Source: an uncultured Clostridia bacterium
GTDB taxonomy: Bacteria; Bacillota; Clostridia; TANB77; CAG-508
Length of the DNA: 38,672 nucleotides
Direction: 5' to 3'
NCBI GenBank assembly: GCA_947594845.1
Contig: CANQEI010000013.1
Span: forward strand, 1 to 38,672
Positions 2,220 through 35,622 of the stretch are shown in pieces. The first letter of the stretch is position 1; each line of letters begins with the position of its first letter. The notes beneath the pieces were generated by a model. It was not told the DNA's origin and ran no database searches. It worked only from the letters and a program-made list of their open reading frames with translations. The position numbers and the translations under genes were made by a program.

Positions 2220-3272
2220 ATGGATAATAAAATAGATATTAATAAATATAAATCATTATTAGAAAATATTAAACAAGAAGTATTAAATGCACAATATAAA
2301 GCAATTTATGCAGTTAACAAAGAATTAATGTTTATGTATTGGCATATTGGAAAAATTATTTTAGAGAATACTCAATGGGGAAATAAATTTATAGATAATT
2401 TATCAATGGATTTAAAAATGGAGTTTCCTGAAATAAAAGGATTTTCAGTAAGAAATTTAAAGTATATGAGGAAGTTTGCAGAAGAATATCCAGATTTTGA
2501 ATTTGTGCAAGAGGTTCTTGCACAAATTACATGGTATCATAATATTATTTTAATGGATAAAATAGATGATATTGAAGAAAGAAAATGGTATATAAAAGAA
2601 ATTGTACAAAATGGTTGGTCTTCAAATATGTTAAAAATGCAAATTAATGGAAGGGTTTATGAGAGACAAGCCTTAGCAGAAAAAATAACAAATTTTGATT
2701 TGACATTACCTAGTGTACAAAGTGATTTAGCTACTCAAACTATGAAAGATCCATATTTATTTGATTTTATTTCTATAAAAGGAAAAGTTAAAGAATTACA
2801 GATAGAAAATGCAATGATAAATAAAATAAAAGATGTTTTAATAGAGTTAGGAAAAGGATTTGCATTTGTTGGAAGTGAGTATAAACTAGAGGTTGGAGGA
2901 AAAGAGTATTTTATAGATTTACTTTTTTATCATTTAAAATTAAAATGTTATATAGTAGTTGAATTGAAAGCAAGAGAGTTTGAGCCAACTGATGCAGGAC
3001 AACTTAATTTTTATTTATCGGCAGTAGATGATTTGGTAAAAGATAAAGATGATAATGCAACTATTGGATTATTACTATGTAAAGGAAAAGATAACTTTAC
3101 AGCAGAATATGCTTTAAAAGATATAAATAAGCCTATTGGAGTTAGCGAATATAAACTACTAGAAGATATGCCTGAATATTTACAATCTCAATTACCTAGA
3201 GCAGAAGATATTGAATTGCACATAAAAGATATTGAGGAATTTGAAAAAAATGAAGATGAAGAAAATAATTAA
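2220..3272 (+). CDS. DUF1016 / YhcG-family PDDEXK nuclease
   Basis: A 350-residue protein with the two-part DUF1016 architecture. The N-terminal half has YWHIGKIILE and GFSVRNLKYMRKFAEEYP. The C-terminal PDDEXK nuclease fold shows D233 in the strand YFIDLLFYH and E248-x-K250 in VVELKAREFEPTDAGQLNFY, matching the D...ExK active site. Family members such as E. coli YhcG are predicted nucleases, often near restriction-modification or other mobile defence genes, but their role is unsettled. No methylase or specificity subunit is adjacent here. The gene is monocistronic, with an AGAAGG site 5' of the ATG, a perfect palindrome just upstream and a terminator at 3358-3400. The family call is strong; a defence role is inference. 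Confidence 0.9.
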   Translation: MDNKIDINKYKSLLENIKQEVLNAQYKAIYAVNKELMFMYWHIGKIILENTQWGNKFIDNLSMDLKMEFPEIKGFSVRNLKYMRKFAEEYPDFEFVQEVLAQITWYHNIILMDKIDDIEERKWYIKEIVQNGWSSNMLKMQINGRVYERQALAEKITNFDLTLPSVQSDLATQTMKDPYLFDFISIKGKVKELQIENAMINKIKDVLIELGKGFAFVGSEYKLEVGGKEYFIDLLFYHLKLKCYIVVELKAREFEPTDAGQLNFYLSAVDDLVKDKDDNATIGLLLCKGKDNFTAEYALKDINKPIGVSEYKLLEDMPEYLQSQLPRAEDIELHIKDIEEFEKNEDEENN

Positions 3273-19262: not shown

Positions 19263-22200
19263 ATGAAATCAAAAAGAATTATTTCATTTATGGCAGTAAT
19301 AACACTTTTAGCATTACAATTTTCATGGATTACTTTTGTTATGCCAAAAGCTTCTTATGCTGCTGATCAACTTGAAACAACAAGTTACACAAACATTTCT
19401 ACAAAATACTTTTACAATCAATTAACAGATGATGCAAAAGTATTTTATCATGTAATGGAAGAAATGAATGCAAATGGCGATCTTAAAAAAGGGAATGCTT
19501 CAAGAGAAATAAAAGAAAATGAATTATCAGGATTACAACAAAAATTAGATGAATTTGCTAATGGTTCTCAAGATTTATTAAATTCAATGGGAGCTGCAAG
19601 AGATGCTTTTGTTGCTGACAATCCAAACATTTTCTATGTTGATTTTGATTATTTCACAATGAGAGTAAACCAAATACAAGGTGTAAAACATTTGTATGTT
19701 GGAACAGGTAGAAGTGATAATTATATCAATAAAGAATTTTTAAGACCAGACGGAAGTATTGATTCAGAAAAAATCGATACTGCAATTAATACAGTTGATA
19801 GTAAAATTAATGAAATTGTATTAAAGGCTAAAGCATTAGAAGGAAACTTACAAGCAGGTCAAGACTTAACAGAACAACAAGTAAAATTAGTTCATAATGA
19901 GGTTATAAAAGCTACTAAATATACATATGAACATCAAACACAACATCCATATACTATTAGAACAACATATGGTGTATTTGGATTAGAAGAAGGAAATGCT
20001 GTTTGTGCTGGTATGGCAAAATCTTTAAAAGTATGTTTAGATAGATTAAATATACCTTGCGTATTAGTTCAAGGTATTTATAGAGTTTCTGAAAATCAAC
20101 CAGAAGAGCATATGTGGGCATATGTTCAATTAAGTGATGACAAATGGTATGCTGTAGATCCTACTTTTGATAATACAGATGAACTAGATGATCAAGATGA
20201 AGAAATAATAGGTGCAAAATATTTCTTAGTTGGTGCAGATAGAATGTACAAACATGTTCCAACAGGAATTATGTCAGCATCTAACTTTGAATTTACATAT
20301 CCAGAATTAGAAGTTTCTAGTGGTAAATTTGATGTAATATTTGATGAAGGACCATTAAAAGTTGAATTAGATGATGAAAGTTATGATCAACAAACATCAG
20401 AATCAACTTCTATTTTAAGAATAAGTTATAATGGACATGGATGCCAAAAAGCTATTGAAGAAGATGGAAAATATATTCTTGTAAACTTTTATCAAGAAGG
20501 TAAAGATGGTGAAGTTAGAAGTTCAGGTTGGTCATATCCAAGACCTGATATTTATGAAAATTCAGGACAACATGATACAGAAAATTGGCTAGAAATGATG
20601 GTAGTGCATGTAAGTTATTTACAAGTTGCAGTAACTGATATTGCACCAGCTCCAAAGAAAAATACATCAGATTTAGAAGAAATAGTTAAACAAACAACAT
20701 ATCTTGGAACAGAAGAATCACTTATTTATAAAACAGATATATTATATAATCCAAACGGAATGTATGTTGCTCCACCTTATGTAGAAAGAGCAACACCAAG
20801 TGTAAGTAGTGTTCAATATATTGGAAAAACATATCCTGTTACTATAGAATATGATGATATATTAGTACCAGATGATAGTGGAGAAGCTCCATCAGTAAGT
20901 GTTATGATATATGAACCATTAACACAAACATATAGAGATGCTTCAGAAAAAATTTCTGTTGGCGATGAGTCACATCCTAGATTACAATATAAAATAACAG
21001 ACTTTAAGTTTGATGGAACAAATACATTTACATTTAACTTTACACCTAGCGAAATGTGGGCAGATGATACTGTATATTATATTTTCGATTTTAAAGGATT
21101 AGTTGGTAGTTATAGTAATAAAAAACCATTATCTACAATTTATCAATGTGCACATACATGTTCAGCATATGCATATACAGCACAAGGATTTAATTTAAAT
21201 GTTTATGGAAAACCAGTTTTAATGGATGACAATATTGATATGTCTCAAATGGGATTAGATGGTGTTAATGATGCACAAATGCAAGAATTAGCAGACATAT
21301 TAAAACATAGATTAACTCTTGTAACAACTAAAACAACAAAAGCTGAGACAAACGTTATGGAAGACCAATTAGAAGAATACCTTGGAGAAGAAGGTGAAAG
21401 CCGTGATGTTATGTCTACAGAAACATATAATATAAACCTTACTCTATGTAAACAACAACAAAAAAATCTAAAAGATGGTATGGGAGTTAGAGTAATGCTT
21501 GGATTCCCACAAGGATATGGACCAGATGATGCAGGTGTTACATTTAAAGCATATCATTATAAGAAAAATCCTCAAGGAGAAATTATCGGAGTTGAAGAAA
21601 TACCATGTACAATTACACCTTTAGGTCTAATTATTGAAGTATATAGCTTCAGCCCATTTACAATTGCAGCTGTAACAGAAACAGCATCTGATAAAGAAGC
21701 TGAAGAAAAATCTGTTGTTTTAAACTCAACAGAAGGAGGTAAAGTTTTAGACATTACTTCTGGAAGTGAAGAGAAAACTGCAGATACAATTAATACATTA
21801 AAAACTCAAGAAAAGAAACAATTTAAAATTGTTGCAGACCAAGGTTATGAAATTGATGAAATCATGGTTGGAGATGAATCAATAGATTTCTCTGATGATT
21901 TGAAAGAATATACTTTAGATGTTAATTACGAAGATTTAGGAGAAGAATCTACTAAAATAGTTAAAGTAGCTTTTGCTGCTGAAAGCGTTCATGAAGCAGA
22001 AAAAGAATTAGGAGCAGAAGTTGTTACACAACCAATAGTAAATATGCCATCATTAACATTAACAGCTAAAACTTATAAGGTAGAGCAAGAAACAAAATCA
22101 GAAACTACAACATTCCATAAAGGTGATAAATTAGAGGTTACTTTTGCAATATCAGAAGCTTCTAATTTGGGAGATGGAATTAACATTATAGGTGGAAGTT

Positions 22201-23006
22201 TTAACTATAATGATAAACTTTTAGAATTAGATACAGAAAACGGAGAAGTACTACAAGGACAATCTTCTGAGTGGAAATATACTTATGACACAACTAGCAA
22301 AATGTTTACTTCTGATACAATAAATAATGATTTATCTAAAAACTCAACTGATAGTATAATCACATTTAAATTTAAAGTAAAAGATGAAATAGATTTTTCT
22401 ACACAGGAAAGCATAGAAACATCAGTATCATTGAAAAATATTACTGCAGGAACAGGTAGACAAGGAGAAAATGGTACTGTTAAAATAGCTGATTGTAGTA
22501 AGGCAATTACTATTTCAAAAGTAGTTGAAGAAAAATTAGAACTTACAGAAGAAGCTGCAGGAAAACATGTTATATTAGATGAAGAATCAAATATTATTGA
22601 AGTACCACTTGGAATGACATATGATGAAGTGGACAAATTATTAAATTGTTCTCAAACTCCAAAATATCATTCTGCTACTGAAAATGCAGATAATTTAGAA
22701 AGTCGTACACTTACTCTTGTAACAGATACATCATCAGCAATAGCTACAGGAGATATAGTAACAGTTGGAACTAAAACATGGACATTTTCTGTAAAAGGAG
22801 ATGTTGATGGAGATGGAAAATTGACTGTAAATGATATAGGTGCAGCTAAAATGCATTATATTGGCAGAACAATTTTAACAGGTGTTTATTTACAAGCTAT
22901 TGAAAATGATAATGTAGAAGGAATTAGTGTAAACGATATAGGAAGATTGAAGTTAGTATATATTAATAAAATTGAAGATTTATATTCTGATTTAAATAAT
23001 GAATAG
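19263..23006 (+). CDS. Secreted transglutaminase-like protein with cohesin-like domain and C-terminal dockerin
   Basis: A 1247-residue exported protein. The signal peptide ends around residue 33 (...KASYA). A transglutaminase-like domain spans ~200-315 with C248 (NAVCAGMAK), H283 (EEHMWAYV) and D299 (YAVDPTF), the cysteine-protease triad order. Beta-rich segments of unknown type follow (~340-830), then a possible InlB-B-like repeat (~820-905) and a cohesin-like beta domain (~928-1086). Residues 1178-1247 form a dockerin: the first calcium loop is D1180-x-D1182-G-D1184...D1191 (DVDGDGKLTVND); the second, before the near-identical VNDIGRLKLVYI, is degenerate. It would act outside the cell on protein or peptidoglycan peptides, held by a cohesin. 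The next gene, 8 bases downstream, supplies exactly such a cohesin with a membrane anchor. Confidence 0.85.
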   Translation: MKSKRIISFMAVITLLALQFSWITFVMPKASYAADQLETTSYTNISTKYFYNQLTDDAKVFYHVMEEMNANGDLKKGNASREIKENELSGLQQKLDEFANGSQDLLNSMGAARDAFVADNPNIFYVDFDYFTMRVNQIQGVKHLYVGTGRSDNYINKEFLRPDGSIDSEKIDTAINTVDSKINEIVLKAKALEGNLQAGQDLTEQQVKLVHNEVIKATKYTYEHQTQHPYTIRTTYGVFGLEEGNAVCAGMAKSLKVCLDRLNIPCVLVQGIYRVSENQPEEHMWAYVQLSDDKWYAVDPTFDNTDELDDQDEEIIGAKYFLVGADRMYKHVPTGIMSASNFEFTYPELEVSSGKFDVIFDEGPLKVELDDESYDQQTSESTSILRISYNGHGCQKAIEEDGKYILVNFYQEGKDGEVRSSGWSYPRPDIYENSGQHDTENWLEMMVVHVSYLQVAVTDIAPAPKKNTSDLEEIVKQTTYLGTEESLIYKTDILYNPNGMYVAPPYVERATPSVSSVQYIGKTYPVTIEYDDILVPDDSGEAPSVSVMIYEPLTQTYRDASEKISVGDESHPRLQYKITDFKFDGTNTFTFNFTPSEMWADDTVYYIFDFKGLVGSYSNKKPLSTIYQCAHTCSAYAYTAQGFNLNVYGKPVLMDDNIDMSQMGLDGVNDAQMQELADILKHRLTLVTTKTTKAETNVMEDQLEEYLGEEGESRDVMSTETYNINLTLCKQQQKNLKDGMGVRVMLGFPQGYGPDDAGVTFKAYHYKKNPQGEIIGVEEIPCTITPLGLIIEVYSFSPFTIAAVTETASDKEAEEKSVVLNSTEGGKVLDITSGSEEKTADTINTLKTQEKKQFKIVADQGYEIDEIMVGDESIDFSDDLKEYTLDVNYEDLGEESTKIVKVAFAAESVHEAEKELGAEVVTQPIVNMPSLTLTAKTYKVEQETKSETTTFHKGDKLEVTFAISEASNLGDGINIIGGSFNYNDKLLELDTENGEVLQGQSSEWKYTYDTTSKMFTSDTINNDLSKNSTDSIITFKFKVKDEIDFSTQESIETSVSLKNITAGTGRQGENGTVKIADCSKAITISKVVEEKLELTEEAAGKHVILDEESNIIEVPLGMTYDEVDKLLNCSQTPKYHSATENADNLESRTLTLVTDTSSAIATGDIVTVGTKTWTFSVKGDVDGDGKLTVNDIGAAKMHYIGRTILTGVYLQAIENDNVEGISVNDIGRLKLVYINKIEDLYSDLNNE

Positions 23007-27735: not shown

Positions 27736-27917
27736 ATGGAAAATTCAAATGATCAAGGAATAGACCCGGAAAGAAAAAAATTCATGGATGAAGTGAGAAG
27801 ATATATAGTCCAGACAATCCAGTTTTAGTTCCGATACAACACGTTACAGCAATATGTAGAACAACCTTTGGTTTGGACAAACCTAAGGAATCAAGAGATG
27901 ATTCAGATCAAAGATAA
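27736..27917 (+). pseudogene. Remnant of a HEPN-type gene: N-terminus joined to C-terminus
   Basis: An ATG with a GAGG-type upstream sequence starts a 30-residue peptide whose MENSN...PERKKFMDEVRRY matches the beginning of the large HEPN protein encoded at 28919-31411 (ENSN..AERQKFLDELSRY). It stops at 27826-27828. The +2 frame then stays open to TAA at 27915-27917, reading PIQHVTAICRTTFGL, which resembles the tail of that HEPN protein (TIQGLTALRELIGE). The middle (about 900 codons) is gone. I read this as a paralogue collapsed by internal deletion, in the opposite orientation to the intact copy. The match is by eye. Confidence 0.6.
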
Positions 27918-27932
27918 AGAAAGGATTTTATA

Positions 27933-28397
27933 ATGGAAGATATTGATTTTAGAAATTCTTGTCAAGAAGTATATCAAGTTTTATATAGTTTAAGATTAAA
28001 AGATTTTATAAAAATTCCTCAGGCAGTAATTGAATACATAGATTCATATCGTAATAAGGATTATGAGTATATTTTTGATACTCAAAATCAGCAATATTCT
28101 GAACTTACAGCTTCTATATTACTTGCGATTTATTATGATTATATAGCAGATGATAAAACTAAAAAATTGTTAGAAGATATTGTAGAACTTAAACAAAAAG
28201 AAATTTCTATAAAAGAAAATATGCAGGAGAAAAAAGAAGAGCCTGTGCCACAAGAGCCTCTACAGGATTCTTCTCCAATTAAAGAACAAGTTTCTCAACC
28301 AGTACAAGAAAATTATCCTGTTTTGTATAAAGAAAACTTTTTTACTAGAATTATTTCTAAGATTAAGGAGTTCTTTTCTATATTTACTAAAAAATAA
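27933..28397 (+). CDS. Small helical protein with C-terminal amphipathic helix (paralogue of 35113-35622)
   Basis: A 154-residue protein of unknown family. Residues ~1-95 form a helical domain; ~96-130 is a P/Q/E-rich linker (PVPQEPLQDSSPIKEQ); the end, NFFTRIISKIKEFFSIFTKK, is an amphipathic or membrane-surface helix. Domain order, the segment KIPQAVIEYID versus KIPKAFIENLN, and the FFxxIxxxxFF-type tail match the product at 35113-35622, so these are diverged paralogues. It follows the HEPN remnant by 15 bases with AAAGGA, so it was probably the partner cistron of that broken gene. A bidirectional terminator follows. Confidence 0.78.
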   Translation: MEDIDFRNSCQEVYQVLYSLRLKDFIKIPQAVIEYIDSYRNKDYEYIFDTQNQQYSELTASILLAIYYDYIADDKTKKLLEDIVELKQKEISIKENMQEKKEEPVPQEPLQDSSPIKEQVSQPVQENYPVLYKENFFTRIISKIKEFFSIFTKK

Positions 28398-28422
28398 AAA
28401 TTAAATATGATATTTTTATAAA

Positions 28423-28466
28423 AAAACTAGGAACGTTTGAGTTGTTGCCCAAACGTTCCTAGTTTT
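28423..28466. terminator. Strong bidirectional terminator
   Basis: AAAACTAGGAACGTTTG at 28423-28439 pairs perfectly with CAAACGTTCCTAGTTTT at 28450-28466 (17 bp, 10-base loop), with A/T tails on both strands, between two converging genes. Confidence 0.92.
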
Positions 28467-28488
28467 ACTTTTTATTAAAATAAAATTT

Positions 28489-28770
28489 TTATCTTGAATC
28501 ATCTGTAGGAGTTTTAAATTTAGAAAGGGTAGAATAATATTCTTTTATAACAGCTTTTATTATTTCAGTATAAGGATTTTCTGATTCAGATGAATTTTTT
28601 ATTAAATCATTTGCGTATTGTATTCTTTCTTCTAATGCTTCATACATAAGATCTTTTGGCTTGGATTCTGCTTGTGGAACTTTTTGACTTGGTGTTATGT
28701 TTAAAGTTGTTAGAGCATTATAGCACATAGTTTGTATTGCATTTGTAGTTATATTTTGTGTGGTAACCAT
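28489..28770 (-). CDS. Frame-displaced C-terminal part of the dual-HEPN protein
   Basis: A 93-residue open frame from an internal ATG at 28770, but the same frame is already open from 28935. Read from there it supplies LGNFDNPDSFKIELFDTS, then GYSFHATIQGLTALREL, exactly the beta/helix end expected for the HEPN domain that is cut off in the upstream gene after RNALAHNMVII. It has no good ribosome binding site at 28770, so I regard it as the tail of the gene at 28919-31411 moved to the +1 frame, not a separate gene. The end is a Lys/Pro/Asp-rich helical tail. Confidence 0.65.
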   Translation of the reverse strand: MVTTQNITTNAIQTMCYNALTTLNITPSQKVPQAESKPKDLMYEALEERIQYANDLIKNSSESENPYTEIIKAVIKEYYSTLSKFKTPTDDSR

Positions 28771-28918
28771 ATTTTCTATAACATTAGAAACTTCACCTAT
28801 AAGTTCTCTTAATGCAGTTAGCCCTTGAATCGTAGCATGAAAAGAATAACCATTGTCATTTTTATCATCGTCTGACGTATCAAAAAGCTCTATTTTAAAA
28901 GAATCTGGATTATCAAAA

Positions 28919-31411
28919 TTACCGAGGATGAATAATTACCATATTATGAGCAAGTGCATTACGTACGTGCCTAAAGAATTCTGAGTTGTCTTGATAAAAT
29001 TCAGTAGGGACAGAAGAATTTTTTGCTGCAGATTGAGCTTCTTTAAATTTGAATCTTATTATTAGGCCGTCTAGAATAGCAAGAGTTTTTGAATCTGAAA
29101 ATTCTTGACGTATTTCTTGACAAAGTTTGTCTTCTAAAGTTTCTACTGCTTTTTGAGCATTTACTTCTGATTTAGTTAGATCAGACTTTAATTTGTTTAC
29201 ATATGTTGATTTAAATCTGCTTTTTAGATTCTGTACTAATTGATCAAGAAATTCCTGTTCTTTTGGATTGTTACTTTCAAAAATTGAAATTTTATCAGAA
29301 CATAATATATCTTTATATATGTATGTAAAGATGTCAGATTGTTTATCTTTTTCATCAATAAAATCTTGGTCTTCTGGTATATTGTGTTTTTGTTTATATA
29401 TTTTTACTAATTCTTCAAGAGTGTCTTGATATTTTGTATTTAATTTTTGCCTTAAAGTTGTATTTTGACCAGAAGATTTGTTATTGCTTTTATAATCCAA
29501 AATAGAATTTATTGCTGATATGATTTGAGCTTCTTGACTTTTTTTCTTATAGCTGGATTTAGTATTTTTAAGAAAATCAACATATTGCTGAAATGATTCA
29601 ATTAAACTTTTATCGTCATTTATATTTAAGTTTATGGCTGATAATTTTTTGTGTAAAGTTATTCTCGGTCTGCCTATTTTTTCAAAGGTTTCAAATAAAT
29701 GAGAATAACCAAGATGGATTTGCGTTCCTAACATATCATCTTTAAAACCTTTTACATAACATTTGTAGTCTATATTGTCAGGAATTTTTACTTGAGTAAA
29801 ATTAAAAAATATATCATTATTATCTAACAAGTTTTTTAATGTTCCAATAGAGTATCCAATAAGAGCGGTAACATATTGGGCATATATTTTGCTTTTATAA
29901 TTTTTCATAAAATCAAGAGCTTCTGGGTTAAATTCTGAATTTTGATCAATATTTAATTTTAGATTTGTTCCAAATAAATTTTTATTTAAATAGTCGGCAT
30001 ATATAAGTGAAACGAATTTATCTGGATGCATGTGTTCCTGTAAAAAGGATTGTAAAAGAAATTTTTGAGATGCTGCATCCATATTATAAAAAGCGTTAGA
30101 TTCATTAAGTCCTTGCTTTTCAAATTGATTAGTTCTTCCAAGTATATGTTCTATTTGTAAATTTCCTAGATTTTCTATAGAAACAGTTTGCAAACATTCT
30201 TCAACAATAGCAGGATCAACTATTTCTAGTATATCTGCTGGTATATTACCAGTTTCTCTGATATAATTAGATACTTTTTTTATTTCTTCTGCACTAAGAC
30301 CAGCATCATATAGCTTAGATAAGTCCATTTTTAGGAATTCGCAGTTTTTCAAAAAATCTTCTAATTCTTTTGGATTTTTTATATTTTGAAAATTTTCAGG
30401 AAATAACATGTATGCATTTGGATTTCTATCGTAGAATGGTTCTTTAAAGCAAAATAGATTATATAATACATCAAAAAAGTCGTCGTATGATATTTCTGCA
30501 GATTTCATATATTTACTTCTAAGGATTATATTATTATTTACTGGGTCATATGAGAAAGTATGGTGCATTATACTGTTTCTTATTTGTTTAAGTTTGGCTT
30601 GAGGTGTTTCAGGGCTGTCTAATAATTGAACATTTTTAACTTTTTTTAAATAAAATTCTAGTATTTCATTTGGAATTGGCTCATCTAAATTTGCTTCATA
30701 AGAAGAGGCAATATGTGTTAGTATAAGTGAACGTAAAATTTCAAAATAGTTAGTGTTTATTTGTTCTTTTGTAATATTTGTTAGAAAATCTTTATAAGTA
30801 GTGTTTAATTTATATTGTGGCAAAGTAGAAATTGTAAAAAAATCTAAATAAGTAACTTTTTTCTGTTCAGAAGGGTAGAAGAAAGCGGGAGTAGTTATTG
30901 AATTTAGTTGATTGGTAGATTGAGTAAAATTATCTAATGCAGTTTCTATTGATTTTCTACTTTGAGGTTCTAATTTTTCTAGATTTGCTTTATATGCTTC
31001 TACATTTTTTTGCATGTTAGCTAATTCTCTAAAAAAAGTAGTTCTTGGGGAAATTAAATCTCCTGTATCTTGTTCTGTAGAATATAAATCTATAATTTTA
31101 AGTGGTGATAGTGAGCTTAAATTTTTTAAACTTTTTTTAAAATTTGCACTTTCCGGTGAAGAATCTCTGTCTAGGGCGTTAAAAAGAGCAGATGTAGTGT
31201 GTTCTACATGCTGTAATCCACTATATATTAATTTTGAATTTTCAACATTTAAAGACGCGTATAAATCGTTAAAAGAATTGAAGTTATTGCTTCTAATTAT
31301 TTCTAATATTACTTCAAATGATTTAATTATTTGGCTATATCTAGATAGTTCATCTAAAAATTTTTGACGTTCAGCGGAAATCTCATTTGAATTTTCATTA
31401 TTTTTTGGCAT
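28919..31411 (-). CDS. Large two-HEPN protein, C-terminus cut by a frameshift
   Basis: An 830-residue cytoplasmic, helical protein with two HEPN RNase-type motifs. R278-NSIM-H283 lies in a typical HEPN end (KQIRNSIMHHTFSYDP, then strand NIILRS and helix YDDFFDVLYNLF). R817-NALA-H822 (EFFRHVRNALAHN) is 8 residues before the stop. The second HEPN domain's remaining part lies in the +1 frame and brings the full product to about 970 residues. Most HEPN proteins with intact RX4H are metal-independent RNases used in toxin or defence systems. Layout (two motifs, one mid, one at the C-terminus) is like Cas13, but I see no other Cas13 resemblance and no CRISPR array. The start has AAAGGAAAT upstream; a plausible promoter is at 31447-31476. 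Confidence 0.82.
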   Translation of the reverse strand: MPKNNENSNEISAERQKFLDELSRYSQIIKSFEVILEIIRSNNFNSFNDLYASLNVENSKLIYSGLQHVEHTTSALFNALDRDSSPESANFKKSLKNLSSLSPLKIIDLYSTEQDTGDLISPRTTFFRELANMQKNVEAYKANLEKLEPQSRKSIETALDNFTQSTNQLNSITTPAFFYPSEQKKVTYLDFFTISTLPQYKLNTTYKDFLTNITKEQINTNYFEILRSLILTHIASSYEANLDEPIPNEILEFYLKKVKNVQLLDSPETPQAKLKQIRNSIMHHTFSYDPVNNNIILRSKYMKSAEISYDDFFDVLYNLFCFKEPFYDRNPNAYMLFPENFQNIKNPKELEDFLKNCEFLKMDLSKLYDAGLSAEEIKKVSNYIRETGNIPADILEIVDPAIVEECLQTVSIENLGNLQIEHILGRTNQFEKQGLNESNAFYNMDAASQKFLLQSFLQEHMHPDKFVSLIYADYLNKNLFGTNLKLNIDQNSEFNPEALDFMKNYKSKIYAQYVTALIGYSIGTLKNLLDNNDIFFNFTQVKIPDNIDYKCYVKGFKDDMLGTQIHLGYSHLFETFEKIGRPRITLHKKLSAINLNINDDKSLIESFQQYVDFLKNTKSSYKKKSQEAQIISAINSILDYKSNNKSSGQNTTLRQKLNTKYQDTLEELVKIYKQKHNIPEDQDFIDEKDKQSDIFTYIYKDILCSDKISIFESNNPKEQEFLDQLVQNLKSRFKSTYVNKLKSDLTKSEVNAQKAVETLEDKLCQEIRQEFSDSKTLAILDGLIIRFKFKEAQSAAKNSSVPTEFYQDNSEFFRHVRNALAHNMVIIHPR

Positions 31412-31446
31412 TTTTTCTATTTCCTTTACTTTAACTTCTTATAGTA

Positions 31447-31476
31447 AGTATATAGCAAAGGATAGCTGTACTTCAA
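31447..31476 (-). promoter_or_regulatory. Probable promoter for the dual-HEPN gene
   Basis: Read on the minus strand: TTGAAG (31476-31471) and TATACT (31452-31447), 18-base spacing, about 36 bases before the ATG at 31411. Confidence 0.45.
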
Positions 31477-31523
31477 GAAAGTAATATATTTGTAACTGAA
31501 ATGATAAATTGTTTTAAAAACTA

Positions 31524-31575
31524 AGAAAAAATAAATAAATTGAACAAAGACCAACTATTGAAGCTGGTCCTTGTT
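31524..31575 (-). terminator. Terminator of the G+C-richer minus-strand gene
   Basis: On the minus strand AACAAGGACCAGC (31575-31563) pairs with GTTGGTCTTTGTT (31555-31543) using two G-U pairs, followed by a T-rich tail. The wobbles form only in the minus transcript, which fixes the direction. Confidence 0.65.
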
Positions 31576-31610
31576 TGTTGTTTGTTTTGTGTGTGTCCGG
31601 GCGCAATCAC

Positions 31611-31892
31611 TTATTCGGTAATAAGTCTGTACACAGTGTCTGAGAACGTCGTAACTTCCCAGAAGCCATCTTTTTCTACCATTTTTACGATGCGGGACGA
31701 TTTTACTGTCTTCCTTACGTCTGTGTTCAAGTAAGGGTGCTGGGTTAATGGCTCTGCAGATACATACACAGGAATGATATTGATTGATTCTTTAACCTGT
31801 GTTGGATCCTGAAAAGGAAGGACAACTCGTGGATTATCGGAGTTGTAACCTAACATGAAATTGTAGTTCTCAGCATATACATATTTGCTCAT
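31611..31892 (-). CDS. Uncharacterised 93-residue protein in a second G+C-richer island
   Basis: I do not recognise this soluble protein. It is mixed alpha/beta in appearance, with strands such as IIPVYVSAE and FWEVTTFSDTVYRLI, and no signal or membrane segment. By direct count 99 of 240 bases (41%) in 31621-31860 are G or C, clearly above the neighbours. A consensus promoter (31960-31988), a GGAGG site 8 bases before the ATG at 31892, a structured leader and its own terminator (31524-31575) make it a self-contained unit. It lies just upstream of the dual-HEPN gene on the same strand but is separated by the terminator. Probably transferred; the role is unknown. Confidence 0.75.
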   Translation of the reverse strand: MSKYVYAENYNFMLGYNSDNPRVVLPFQDPTQVKESINIIPVYVSAEPLTQHPYLNTDVRKTVKSSRIVKMVEKDGFWEVTTFSDTVYRLITE

Positions 31893-31957
31893 ACCATGCG
31901 CCTCCGTGCGCGATGCCCGACATATGGGCGTGTGAAACTAAATTTTCAGTTACACAC
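31893..31957 (-). promoter_or_regulatory. Structured leader and inverted repeat at the transcription start
   Basis: GTGTGAAACT at 31930-31939 and AGTTACACAC at 31948-31957 form an inverted repeat with one mismatch over the expected start point, a candidate operator. Next to it are GCCC/GGGC (31915-31929) and GCGC...GCGC around the CGGAGG ribosome binding site (about 31898-31911), which could mask it. Confidence 0.45.
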
Positions 31958-31959
31958 CT

Positions 31960-31988
31960 ATTATATCACATTTTATGTAAATAAGCAA
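31960..31988 (-). promoter_or_regulatory. Sigma-A promoter for the G+C-richer minus-strand gene
   Basis: On the minus strand TTGCTT (31988-31983) and a perfect TATAAT (31965-31960), 17-base spacing. Confidence 0.7.
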
Positions 31989-32014
31989 CTTTTTTAGCTT
32001 TATAGGCGAATCTA

Positions 32015-32042
32015 TTGACTTATTTTATTTATATAATATAAA
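32015..32042 (+). promoter_or_regulatory. Probable promoter for the Nudix gene
   Basis: TTGACT at 32015-32020 and TATAAA at 32037-32042, 16-base spacing, divergent from the minus-strand promoter at 31960-31988. Confidence 0.55.
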
Positions 32043-32088
32043 ATGAAGTAGAAAATTTTATTATTAGAGTGGAATTAAGGAGAAGAAT

Positions 32089-32508
32089 ATGAGAAAGTTA
32101 AACTTAATTGTAGTTTTTAATGATAATTTGGAAAAAGTACTATTTTGCATAAGAGCAAAGGAACCATATAAAGGACTATATAATTTTGTTGGTGGCAAAG
32201 TAGAAAATGGTGAAACTAATGATGAAGCAGCATATAGAGAATTGTTTGAGGAAACAGGAATATCTAATAAAGATATAGAATTGGACCATTTTATGGATTT
32301 AAATTATTTTAAATATGAAAATAATTTACAAGTTTACTATGGTATTTTAGATCACGAAGTAAATTTGATAGAAGAAAAGAATAAGTTGGAATGGGTAACT
32401 ATAAGTGATAAGCTATTAGATAATTCAAAGTTCGCAGGAAATTATAATATACCTCACATAATAAGACAGATAAAATTGTATTTAGAAAATGGAAATGCTG
32501 TAAGTTAA
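32089..32508 (+). CDS. Nudix hydrolase
   Basis: A 139-residue Nudix-fold hydrolase. The full Nudix box Gx5Ex7REUxEExGU is present as GKVENGE-7-RELFEETGI at residues ~42-64, with the catalytic and metal-binding REUxEE glutamates intact. It resembles MutT/8-oxo-dGTP diphosphatase-type enzymes that remove pyrophosphate from nucleotides, but the substrate cannot be fixed from the box alone. Length is normal. Strong AAGGAG seven bases before the ATG; promoter at 32015-32042 and terminator at 32519-32559 make it monocistronic. Confidence 0.9.
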   Translation: MRKLNLIVVFNDNLEKVLFCIRAKEPYKGLYNFVGGKVENGETNDEAAYRELFEETGISNKDIELDHFMDLNYFKYENNLQVYYGILDHEVNLIEEKNKLEWVTISDKLLDNSKFAGNYNIPHIIRQIKLYLENGNAVS

Positions 32509-32837: not shown

Positions 32838-34220
32838 ATGAATTGTAAATCATACCAGGCAATTAAAGAATTATATGAATATATGGTTCAATTAAATAAA
32901 AAAGTTATTTCTCTTGATGATATAATGAAATGTTTTGATTGCCAAAGCCAAGATATAGATTCTATTATATCAAGTGAGGATATTTTATTTACAAAAGAAC
33001 TATTAGACTCTGATGATATGAGTGCTCTTATGGTTGATAGATTTAGAAAAGATTATGCTCAAATGACTCCTAAAGAGATTGCTGATAATATTGCTGAATT
33101 TATGAAAGAATGCGTATCTGATAAAGAGGTTTTTGAAGCTGTGCCTGATGCAAGTTATTATCTTAATTTGTTTGAAGATTGTGATTATCAATTTAAAAAT
33201 TTGTTAATTGAGTATACAGATAAGAAAACTTTGTATGAATACATAAATGGAAATGGAAAGTCAAAAGATTCAATAATTGAGTTTTTAGCTAGTAATGTTG
33301 ATATTAATTCTTTATTTGAAGTTGCAACCTCAATTACATCTGATTATGATAAAACTATGCTAATTTTAAAGGCTACTAATGATAGAACTATGGAAGCTAT
33401 TGAGGATGAGCTTATACCAACTGTTGAATTGATGCTTTTTCCACTAGTTAGTGACAAATTCTTTGAAATGCAAATTACTAAAGCATATTATTCAAATTAT
33501 CCTGGCTATCCTACACCAGAGAACATATTTACTGAAATTGAAGAATATCGTAGTCATTTAGAAAAAATAAATCAATTTAAAGATGATGAGAGTAAAGCAA
33601 AATATATTTCCAAAATAGAAAATAAGGATATGAAAGAGGCGCTTTTATCTAGAATTAAAGATAAAAAATGTAGGAATATGGTTATTCAAAGTTTCAATAA
33701 GCATGTTGATCCTAAAATGGCTAGCTTAGATAAATTTGCCCAAACAGCAATAAGAGAATTTTTTGAAGATACTTTAGGAGAAAATTTTACTGATGATAAA
33801 AGAGAAAGATTGGAGATTGTTCTAAGAAGAAGTGATGTATTGTTCCAAAGACTTGAAGATGAAAATTGCAATGGATTGGCTGATTATGTACTTAAGAAAA
33901 TTATGATTTCTAGTGAATATGAAATGGAACTAAGTGAATATTTGCAAACTATTATTCACGAATATTCACATTTACTTTCTAATATTAATTATCCTTGCAT
34001 AAGAAGTTTACCAAATTTTGAGATAGAAGAAGGAATGGCAGATTTATTTTCAGAATTGGTAATAAATAATTATTTAGAAAAGCATAAAGAAATAGAAATA
34101 GATGGAGAAGTAATTAAATATGATAATGAAATGTTTATATCGGAATCTGGGTATGATTTTGAAAATGCTTGGCCTAGAACCATGCTAGCTGGACTAGAAA
34201 AAATGGACAAGATTTATTAG
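32838..34220 (+). CDS. HEXXH zinc metalloprotease-like protein (N-terminal part, frameshifted)
   Basis: A 460-residue open frame with an intact gluzincin-type zinc site: H374-E375-Y-S-H378 in TIIHEYSHLL and E397/E398 in EIEEGMADLFSEL, about 20 residues later. The first ~300 residues are helical and unlike any family I know. It ends in GLEKMDKIY at a TAG (34218-34220), but the -1 frame continues at once with GQDLLAASEYLLGEK into the next open frame. The intact product would be about 750 residues. The break falls near a run of six A (34198-34203). No signal peptide, so it is probably cytoplasmic. RBS AGGAGG; 10 bases after the small gene. Confidence 0.78.
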   Translation: MNCKSYQAIKELYEYMVQLNKKVISLDDIMKCFDCQSQDIDSIISSEDILFTKELLDSDDMSALMVDRFRKDYAQMTPKEIADNIAEFMKECVSDKEVFEAVPDASYYLNLFEDCDYQFKNLLIEYTDKKTLYEYINGNGKSKDSIIEFLASNVDINSLFEVATSITSDYDKTMLILKATNDRTMEAIEDELIPTVELMLFPLVSDKFFEMQITKAYYSNYPGYPTPENIFTEIEEYRSHLEKINQFKDDESKAKYISKIENKDMKEALLSRIKDKKCRNMVIQSFNKHVDPKMASLDKFAQTAIREFFEDTLGENFTDDKRERLEIVLRRSDVLFQRLEDENCNGLADYVLKKIMISSEYEMELSEYLQTIIHEYSHLLSNINYPCIRSLPNFEIEEGMADLFSELVINNYLEKHKEIEIDGEVIKYDNEMFISESGYDFENAWPRTMLAGLEKMDKIY

Positions 34221-34258: not shown

Positions 34259-35104
34259 ATGGAAATGATTTTAGGAAAAGACAAAGCAAATTCAAAAGGA
34301 AATTCCGGCTACCAGATGCCTGATATGGTAACAACTATGGACGAAATATATAGATCAGAAGCCTTAGATTTTTCTGAAATAGATTATAATTCAATTTATT
34401 ATAGTAGAAATCATATATTACCATTATTTATATTACAAAATAGGCTTAAGGATAAAATAGAATTAGTAGATGTTATAGAGCAAGGAAGTTCTTATTCTGC
34501 AAGCGAAGTAGCAAATCTTTATTTTGAGGGCAAGAAATTTTATGAAGTGCCTGTAATGGAGCTGCAAGAATTTATAGATTTGCTTCATGAACAAATTACT
34601 CCTCAAGAAGAATTCAACTTTGGCGACAGAAGCGTAATTACAGATATTTGCGAGTATGAAGATAATCAAGTGAAAAATTTGACTGATGAAGAAATAAGAG
34701 AGCATTCTTTTGAAGTATTGTGTGGAATTTATAGATTATTTCAGAATCGTTATGACATGGAGTCTACTGATTTCTTAGAGCATGCAGTTGATGTTGCTAT
34801 TAAAGAGGAAATAAGAAAAATACATAGTGGAGAGCAATCAAAAGAAGTAACTGAAATGAAGAGACAAGAGATTGTTTCTAGATATGAAGAATTTATTTTA
34901 TTTGAAAATGATAATATAATGCATTTTTTAAGCAACTATAATAAAGCATGTGACCAGACATTAATTATTCCAAGATTTTTATTAAAAAAAGATGGAATGA
35001 GAGACATGGCAAAAGATGTAGATGTAGCAATGAAAAAAGGAACAGCGGCTTCTATAATTTCAAAATTACAAAAACCACTAAAAAAAGATACTGAACAGAA
35101 ATAG
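34259..35104 (+). CDS. C-terminal part of the frameshifted metalloprotease
   Basis: A 281-residue open frame from an internal ATG; the same frame is open from 34178, reading through GQDLLAASEYLLGEKHKF before this ATG. No ribosome binding site precedes 34259. The natural reading is one gene with the 32838 frame, broken by loss of one base or rescued by -1 slippage. The fragment is helical and acidic with no recognised domain; it ends in a Lys-rich tail. The next gene starts 8 bases downstream with AGGAG, so the operon continues. Confidence 0.7.
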   Translation: MEMILGKDKANSKGNSGYQMPDMVTTMDEIYRSEALDFSEIDYNSIYYSRNHILPLFILQNRLKDKIELVDVIEQGSSYSASEVANLYFEGKKFYEVPVMELQEFIDLLHEQITPQEEFNFGDRSVITDICEYEDNQVKNLTDEEIREHSFEVLCGIYRLFQNRYDMESTDFLEHAVDVAIKEEIRKIHSGEQSKEVTEMKRQEIVSRYEEFILFENDNIMHFLSNYNKACDQTLIIPRFLLKKDGMRDMAKDVDVAMKKGTAASIISKLQKPLKKDTEQK

Positions 35105-35112
35105 GAGTAGAT

Positions 35113-35622
35113 ATGACTGATTTAGAAACAAAAGAGTATAAAAAGGCATATGTTGAACTAAATGAAATTATAAAATTAATGCCACCAGAGGAAAAGAAAA
35201 AAATTCCAAAGGCATTTATTGAAAACCTAAATAATGAAATGGATAAAAATTATACTTTTTTTATTGATAGTAATAAAAGTATTTATGAGCAGGATTATAA
35301 GGTAGAAACAAAAGCTTTACTTGTTGAGCTTTACGAAAGATACTTAGCGCTAGAAGATGAAAAAGAATTTTGGCGAGCATATGATAAATTATGTTTTGAT
35401 GCAATTCAAAAGAAGAACAGAGAAATTTATAATCCTGATAAAATATTTGAAAAAGCTGATTTTAATGATGATATTAAAGGTACAAAAGACGATTTAAACA
35501 TAAATGATGATAGCAATATTGAGGTAGATAAAGATTTTTTACCATTGGAAAATAAAAAGACAGATATATTTACTAAGTTTATACAAGTTTTAAAGAAATT
35601 TTTTCATATAACTAAAAATTGA
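35113..35622 (+). CDS. Small helical protein with C-terminal hydrophobic helix (paralogue of 27933-28397)
   Basis: A 169-residue protein. A helical domain (about 1-95) contains KKIPKAFIENLNNEMDKNY and a KALLVELYERYLA helix that align with the product of 27933-28397 (KIPQAVIEYIDSYRNKDY and ASILLAIYYDYIA). An acidic linker (~118-148) and the ending DIFTKFIQVLKKFFHITKN again mirror its tail. The family is unknown. It is coupled to the metalloprotease, starting 8 bases after its end, while the paralogue follows a HEPN remnant, so this looks like a reusable partner gene, possibly tethering effectors to membrane or another protein. Confidence 0.76.
   Translation: MTDLETKEYKKAYVELNEIIKLMPPEEKKKIPKAFIENLNNEMDKNYTFFIDSNKSIYEQDYKVETKALLVELYERYLALEDEKEFWRAYDKLCFDAIQKKNREIYNPDKIFEKADFNDDIKGTKDDLNINDDSNIEVDKDFLPLENKKTDIFTKFIQVLKKFFHITKN

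What the first reader, a model, noticed from the sequence alone, without database searches (positions are those of the whole stretch)
28489..31411. A ~970-residue protein with two HEPN RX4H motifs
R278-NSIM-H283 and R817-NALA-H822 sit in HEPN-like contexts (RN-x-x-x-H, then strand and acidic helix), one about a third in, one at the C-terminus. Two RX4H sites in one large protein is the arrangement of Cas13-type RNases, but the rest does not look like Cas13 and there is no array nearby. This may be a little-known family of large HEPN RNases, perhaps for phage defence or toxin action.
Basis: partly seen in the sequence, partly recalled or inferred. Interest (0 to 1): 0.7.

Follow-up and report, generated by a model that had tools for sequence, protein, structure and literature searches.

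The report
Orphan two-motif HEPN RNase, frame-broken
An uncultured gut bacterium carries a large, unclassified gene whose protein bears two copies of a signature of RNA-cutting enzymes, spaced much as in Cas13, but no relatives were found and the gene as assembled changes reading frame just after the second copy.

Summary
The minus-strand ORF 28919-31411 (830 aa) has exactly two R-x4-H motifs, R278-NSIM-H283 and R817-NALA-H822. It is not one 970-residue ORF: the coding frame changes within 28919-28938, just after the second motif, and 148 codons continue in another frame. RN-xxx-H is rare: 3 in 228,857 residues of 510 background ORFs, none with two. Two by chance is unlikely. Wider HEPN support is weak: HEPN2 aligns in register with an Abi_2 (AbiD/F) profile above all 60 shuffles, over 22 columns only; HEPN1 is not clearly above its shuffles, and the two regions do not resemble each other. 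No family library or PDB search gave a meaningful match. No relative turned up in the genome samples or collections searched. No CRISPR-like array lies in the contig, although the motif spacing (539) nearly equals UrCas13d's (535). The gene appears monocistronic, with no antitoxin-like partner. Best reading: a single-chain, two-HEPN conditional RNase, probably defensive, possibly dead as assembled. A by-product: a multicopy ~150-aa family downstream of very varied genes, many sharing a C-terminal tail.

The parts
28919..31411 (-). First-frame ORF, 830 aa, with both R-x4-H motifs
30563..30580 (-). R278-NSIM-H283 (RX4H 1)
   Evidence: coordinates by arithmetic from the ORF start
28946..28963 (-). 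R817-NALA-H822 (RX4H 2)
   Evidence: coordinates by arithmetic
28919..28938 (-). Stretch in which the coding frame changes, just after RX4H 2
   Evidence: frames; codon-score switch
28491..28935 (-). Second-frame continuation, 148 aa; its start would be the strand/helix region after RX4H 2
   Evidence: (third-position GC 0.128)
28418..28465 (.). Strong hairpin between the convergent ends of the HEPN gene and the 154-aa gene; likely bidirectional terminator (limits approximate)
   Evidence: MFE -27.5, z -9.2; not listed by the terminator scan
31543..31575 (-). Terminator-like hairpin that separates the upstream 93-aa ORF from the HEPN gene
31611..31892 (-). 93-aa ORF upstream on the same strand, GC 0.40 against 0.27 for the window; apparently its own transcription unit
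27933..28397 (+). 154-aa member of a multicopy family; convergent neighbour of the HEPN gene

Best explanation
A large cytosolic single-chain protein in which two HEPN half-sites, about 540 residues apart, pair within the molecule to make one metal-independent RNase site; the residues before and between them hold it inactive until a trigger (phage or stress ligand) is sensed, after which it cuts cellular or phage RNA, as in abortive infection. Shown: two RN-xxx-H motifs, the coding frame break, no operon partner on its strand, no array in the contig. Inferred: HEPN fold, intramolecular pairing, RNase activity, defence role, trigger. As assembled the first frame ends 8 residues after RX4H 2, so this copy is probably inactive, or the break is an assembly error.
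For: Exactly two R-x4-H, both with N after R; rarity of RN.{3}H in 510 background ORFs; polar residue after R is the HEPN norm (PMC3710099, section 6 read). HEPN2 motif aligns with RNxxAH of a 20-sequence Abi_2 profile, score 24.9, 0 of 60 shuffles as high (max 21.3); other pieces of the same protein score 11-15. Two RX4H in one chain is the layout of Cas13 intramolecular HEPN dimers and of further non-CRISPR protein clusters (PMC12165695, section 3 read). Near-orphan distribution is in keeping with conflict genes (inference). Monocistronic.
Against: No profile library hit: Pfam 0 families for the whole ORF and for HEPN1; Abi_2 for HEPN2 only at E 2.1. HEPN1 scores 19.05 against Abi_2 over 12 columns that do not include its RX4H, and 1 of 60 shuffles is as high. 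HEPN1 and HEPN2 do not align above shuffles (732 and 203 of 3000 as good). No structure. No relatives, so no conservation of either motif can be shown. No known defence gene adjoins it; the nearest PADLOC candidate that I scanned with a strong score is 25 kb away (2220-3272). The frame break argues against a working product.
Confidence: 0.45

Rival explanations
1. The motifs are chance matches in a large helical structural or scaffold protein that is not an RNase.
For: No HEPN family hit in Pfam, NCBIfam, PADLOC, PHROGs; HEPN1 not clearly above shuffles and the two regions not alike; R-x4-H alone would occur twice in 5% of shuffles.
Against: RN.{3}H twice: 0.02% of shuffles and 0 of 510 background ORFs; both have the hydrophobic/small residues seen in Abi_2 motifs RNICAH, RNAVAH, RNAAAH.
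Confidence: 0.22
2. It is one of this lineage's varied 'effector' genes that normally work with the ~150-aa partner family, perhaps exported or held in check by it, here with a rearranged neighbourhood.
For: Its 3' neighbour 27933-28397 is a family member that has lost a same-strand partner; upstream of that member 27736-27828 encodes MENSNDQGIDPERKKFMDEVRRY, similar to the HEPN N-terminus (score 61, 0 of 2000 shuffles, max 46; E 0.049).
Against: The score 61 is only fifth of 6137 fragments compared with the same protein, the four above it being unrelated 60-residue pieces. The C-terminal tail shared by 47 of 103 upstream genes is absent: the HEPN tail piece scores 0.4 bits, within shuffles. 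The HEPN gene points the other way and has no partner of its own. phmmer finds no similarity between it and the ORFs of the partner loci.
Confidence: 0.13
3. A very divergent Cas13, close in proportions to Cas13d, whose array lies elsewhere in the genome or was lost.
For: R278/R817 spacing 539 against R288/R823 (535) in UrCas13d (PMC6559982, passages); Cas13 subtypes can be undetectable to each other by HMM (PMC12165695); gut Clostridia host.
Against: No direct repeats of 20 nt or more within 120 bases anywhere in the contig, no tandem array near it; no PADLOC or NCBIfam Cas13 match, no PDB Cas13 chain at E 10. The rest of the genome was not searched for arrays or cas genes.
Confidence: 0.06
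4. Two HEPN domains that each pair with the same domain of a second molecule, or only one of them catalytic, so that the active form is a homodimer of large chains.
For: Most HEPN proteins homodimerise (PMC12165695 abstract section); HEPN2 is the better supported of the two.
Against: Both motifs keep R, N and H, which a dead half need not; no structure to decide.
Confidence: 0.12

Closest known systems
Cas13d (type VI-D), for example UrCas13d
   Same: One large chain with two R-x4-H sites at nearly the same places (R288, R823 against R278, R817; PMC6559982 passages); Clostridia of the gut.
   Different: No detectable sequence similarity; no array in 38.7 kb; 157 residues after R817 if the second frame is counted.
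Non-CRISPR proteins with an intramolecular HEPN dimer (twelve AlphaFold clusters, two of them Cas13an; PMC12165695, section 3)
   Same: Two HEPN sites in one chain without an array.
AbiD/AbiF (Pfam Abi_2), abortive-infection HEPN RNases
   Same: RNxxAH motif of HEPN2 aligns in register over 22 columns.
   Different: About 300 aa with one RX4H in most of the 20 fetched; Pfam E only 2.1; no Rfam match above threshold near the gene, abiF motif family included.
HEPN superfamily toxins of type II toxin-antitoxin pairs
   Same: RN-xxx-H motif.
   Different: Much larger; no antitoxin-like gene in the same transcription unit.

Membership tests
HEPN superfamily | R-x4-6-H with a polar residue after R | tested here: met
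   Twice; norm in PMC3710099 section 6
HEPN superfamily | Four-helix fold with the motif at the end of helix 3 | not testable with these tools
   Structure prediction switched off; the simple propensity plot was not informative
HEPN superfamily | Profile similarity to a HEPN family | tested here: inconclusive
   HEPN2 over Abi_2: 0 of 60 shuffles as high; HEPN1: 1 of 60 and not at its motif; no Pfam hit under E 2 that is a HEPN family
Cas13 / type VI CRISPR-Cas | CRISPR array beside the gene | tested here: not met
   No close direct repeats in the whole 38,672-base contig; rest of the genome not searched
Cas13 / type VI CRISPR-Cas | Sequence match to Cas13 profiles or solved chains | tested here: not met
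   (presence of Cas13 models in the libraries recalled, not checked)
Cas13 / type VI CRISPR-Cas | Two HEPN sites meeting in one composite site | not testable with these tools
   no model
AbiD/AbiF (Abi_2) | Pfam Abi_2 above its cut-off | tested here: not met
   HEPN2 piece E 2.1, 9.0 bits, cut-off 25.6
AbiD/AbiF (Abi_2) | Associated abiF RNA motif | tested here: not met
   No Rfam match at gathering score in the window; below it in 28300-32100 eight matches, none an abiF family
Type II toxin-antitoxin | Antitoxin gene in the same operon | tested here: not met
   Nearest same-strand ORF is behind a terminator-like hairpin
Lineage-specific effector set with ~150-aa partner | Conserved C-terminal tail | tested here: not met
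   HEPN tail piece 0.4 bits, within shuffles; note that 56 of 103 upstream genes also lack a match at E 0.01
Lineage-specific effector set with ~150-aa partner | Partner gene directly downstream on the same strand | tested here: not met
   The neighbouring member is convergent

The most novel reading that the evidence does not exclude
A CRISPR-less, Cas13d-proportioned single-chain RNase: an independent or pre-CRISPR fusion of two HEPN half-sites around a large helical recognition region, activated by something other than a crRNA, in a lineage of gut Clostridia.
Probability: 0.25. Interest if true: 0.7.

Novelty: new variant of a known kind. Interest (0 to 1): 0.4.

Why it matters
If both sites are HEPN and pair within the chain, it adds a large, array-free two-HEPN RNase outside the named families. 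Such proteins bear on how Cas13 arose from abortive-infection HEPN genes, and on what can trigger such an RNase when there is no guide. If it is a pseudogene or chance, it matters little. The stronger lead may be the neighbouring ~150-aa family with its varied upstream genes and shared C-terminal tail.

Tried and rejected
Relatives: family sample (195 genomes), genus (14), order (385), phylum (398) and class (391), samples overlapping; the second-frame piece in 190 family genomes; viral contigs with the whole ORF, HEPN1, HEPN2 and the second-frame piece; genome contigs; phages and plasmids. Hits outside the own gene had E 0.002 or worse. Of these I looked at L002-L014, L092-L100 except one strand each, then all of the rest that were given loci, L192 and L193 included, on both strands: none of the frames shown holds RN.{3}H and I take them for chance. 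alone had read only the plus strand of some loci; one search mended that.

Cas13: rejected as a membership for want of profile hits and array. Type II toxin-antitoxin: no operon partner. AbiF with RNA antitoxin: no Rfam hit. Effector of the 150-aa partner set: tail test negative and N-terminal likeness within the noise of a wider comparison. Duplication of one HEPN region into the other: no. The motif control with hhalign planned had only one segment and tells nothing. Secondary-structure propensities were not useful. L044-L050 as carriers of the same N-terminus: no.

Papers: PMC12165695 outline, section 3 and passages; PMC3710099 abstract, passages, sections 6 and 7; PMC6559982 and PMC12373285 passages; the rest only as search listings.

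Full report
What is there. Minus strand, 31411 down to 28919: one ORF of 830 aa. Its only R-x4-H motifs are RNSIMH at 278 and RNALAH at 817. Codon scores favour this frame down to about 29060 and another frame from about 28910 to 28491 (windows of 120 bases), so the coding sequence changes frame within 28919-28938, where both frames are open. The second piece is 148 aa with ordinary third-position GC (0.128).

Is it more than chance? R-x4-H twice would be seen in 5.2% of shuffles, so that alone is weak. With N after R it is 0.02%. In 510 ORFs of at least 250 aa from loci of related bacteria, RN.{3}H occurs 3 times in 228,857 residues and never twice in one ORF. From that rate the chance for one 830-aa protein is about 6 in 100,000 (my arithmetic; the window was chosen by a reader of many sequences, so the true figure is larger).

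Is it HEPN? No library says so: Pfam, NCBIfam, PADLOC, PHROGs, PDB sequences (best E values 0.94, 0.031, 0.18, 0.25, none a HEPN protein by name). A profile of 20 Abi_2 proteins fetched gives HEPN2 24.9 over 22 columns, motif on motif, with 0 of 60 shuffles as high; HEPN1 gives 19.05 over 12 columns after its motif, with 1 of 60 shuffles as high; three other pieces of the protein give 11 to 15. The HEPN1 stretch and its Abi_2 match both begin 30 residues after their R; I noticed this afterwards. HEPN1 and HEPN2 do not align to each other above shuffles, before or after the motif. The fold could not be predicted. I put the chance that both are true HEPN sites at about 0.7.

Surroundings. Upstream on the same strand lies a 93-aa ORF in a GC-rich patch (0.40) that ends in a terminator-like hairpin at 31575-31543. 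Downstream a perfect hairpin lies between the HEPN gene and the convergent 154-aa gene. So the HEPN gene appears to be transcribed alone and has no antitoxin-like partner. No tRNA, Rfam gene or close direct repeat was found in the contig. The window is the whole contig C13 of a 1.34-Mb, 39-contig genome.

Relatives. None. Beyond the gene itself, matches in the family, genus, order, phylum and class samples were at E 0.0018 or worse and hold no RN.{3}H in the frames shown (32, 109). The samples overlap and are parts of larger groups; metagenome contigs were not open to me. So conservation, the best test, is missing.

How it may work. If both sites are HEPN, the simplest reading is one composite active site made within the chain, as in Cas13 (PMC12165695), with the rest of the protein as sensor and lock. 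The spacing of the two R residues, 539, is close to the 535 of UrCas13d (PMC6559982 passages), but nothing else here points to Cas13. A defence role is inferred from what HEPN proteins of this size and isolation tend to do, not shown. The frame break removes what follows RX4H 2, so this copy as assembled would probably be inactive.

The neighbouring family. The 154-aa gene has 9 copies in this genome and matches in 12 of 14 genus genomes. I collected 46 hits in the fetched loci (the last two weak) and 75 more in 68 named loci of uncultured gut Clostridia (the two sets share some loci, such as L055 and L101). In the named set, 60 have a same-strand gene of at least 100 aa within 150 bases upstream, often overlapping by 7 bases. 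These upstream genes differ greatly: 8 of 103 have HExxH, one matches Fic, one GH10, one PHP, three mTERF among 36 scanned, the HEPN ORF included; others look to me like ADP-ribosyltransferase, caspase or transglutaminase types (recalled from sequence, no call). 47 of 103 match a C-terminal tail profile with consensus ..VVKNALNQGITTEDV..EGETKDD at E 0.01 (the profile was iterated on the same set, and the set includes repeated loci and some housekeeping neighbours). The HEPN protein lacks this tail. An N-terminal likeness between the HEPN protein and a remnant upstream of the 154-aa gene looked good alone but is only fifth of 6137 fragments.

Verdict. Real motifs, probable two-HEPN RNase, no family, no fold, probably broken. 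Interest 0.4; it would rise if intact relatives with both motifs conserved were found.

Noticed in passing
window 27933-28397 and 35113-35622; L051-L090; L101-L168: A multicopy ~150-aa family (consensus ..KIPxxxI..KREKYNPDxIF..KIxNKIKxxF) lies downstream of highly varied larger genes in uncultured gut Clostridia; 47 of 103 of those genes share a C-terminal tail. It looks like a common partner or chaperone for a varied effector set; no Pfam or PDB match of weight.
   Followed up: partly
window 31611-31892: 93-aa ORF in a GC-rich patch (0.40 against 0.27); a relative with 52% identity and two stops in G145 (L016), weaker matches in two further genomes of 195.
   Followed up: partly
window 27736-27828: Short ORF MENSNDQGIDPERKKFMDEVRRY.. 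before the 154-aa gene, similar to the HEPN protein's N-terminus but not significant in a wide comparison; possibly the stump of a lost upstream gene.
   Followed up: yes
window 2220-3272: 350-aa protein matching PADLOC PDC-S02 (E 4e-142), a candidate defence family.
   Followed up: no
window 32838-34220: 460-aa protein with HEYSH, in a run with 34259-35104 and the 150-aa family member 35113-35622; no Pfam family over its cut-off.
   Followed up: no
window 19263-23006: 1247-aa protein with a partial match to MAG6410-family transglutaminase-related lipoprotein.
   Followed up: no
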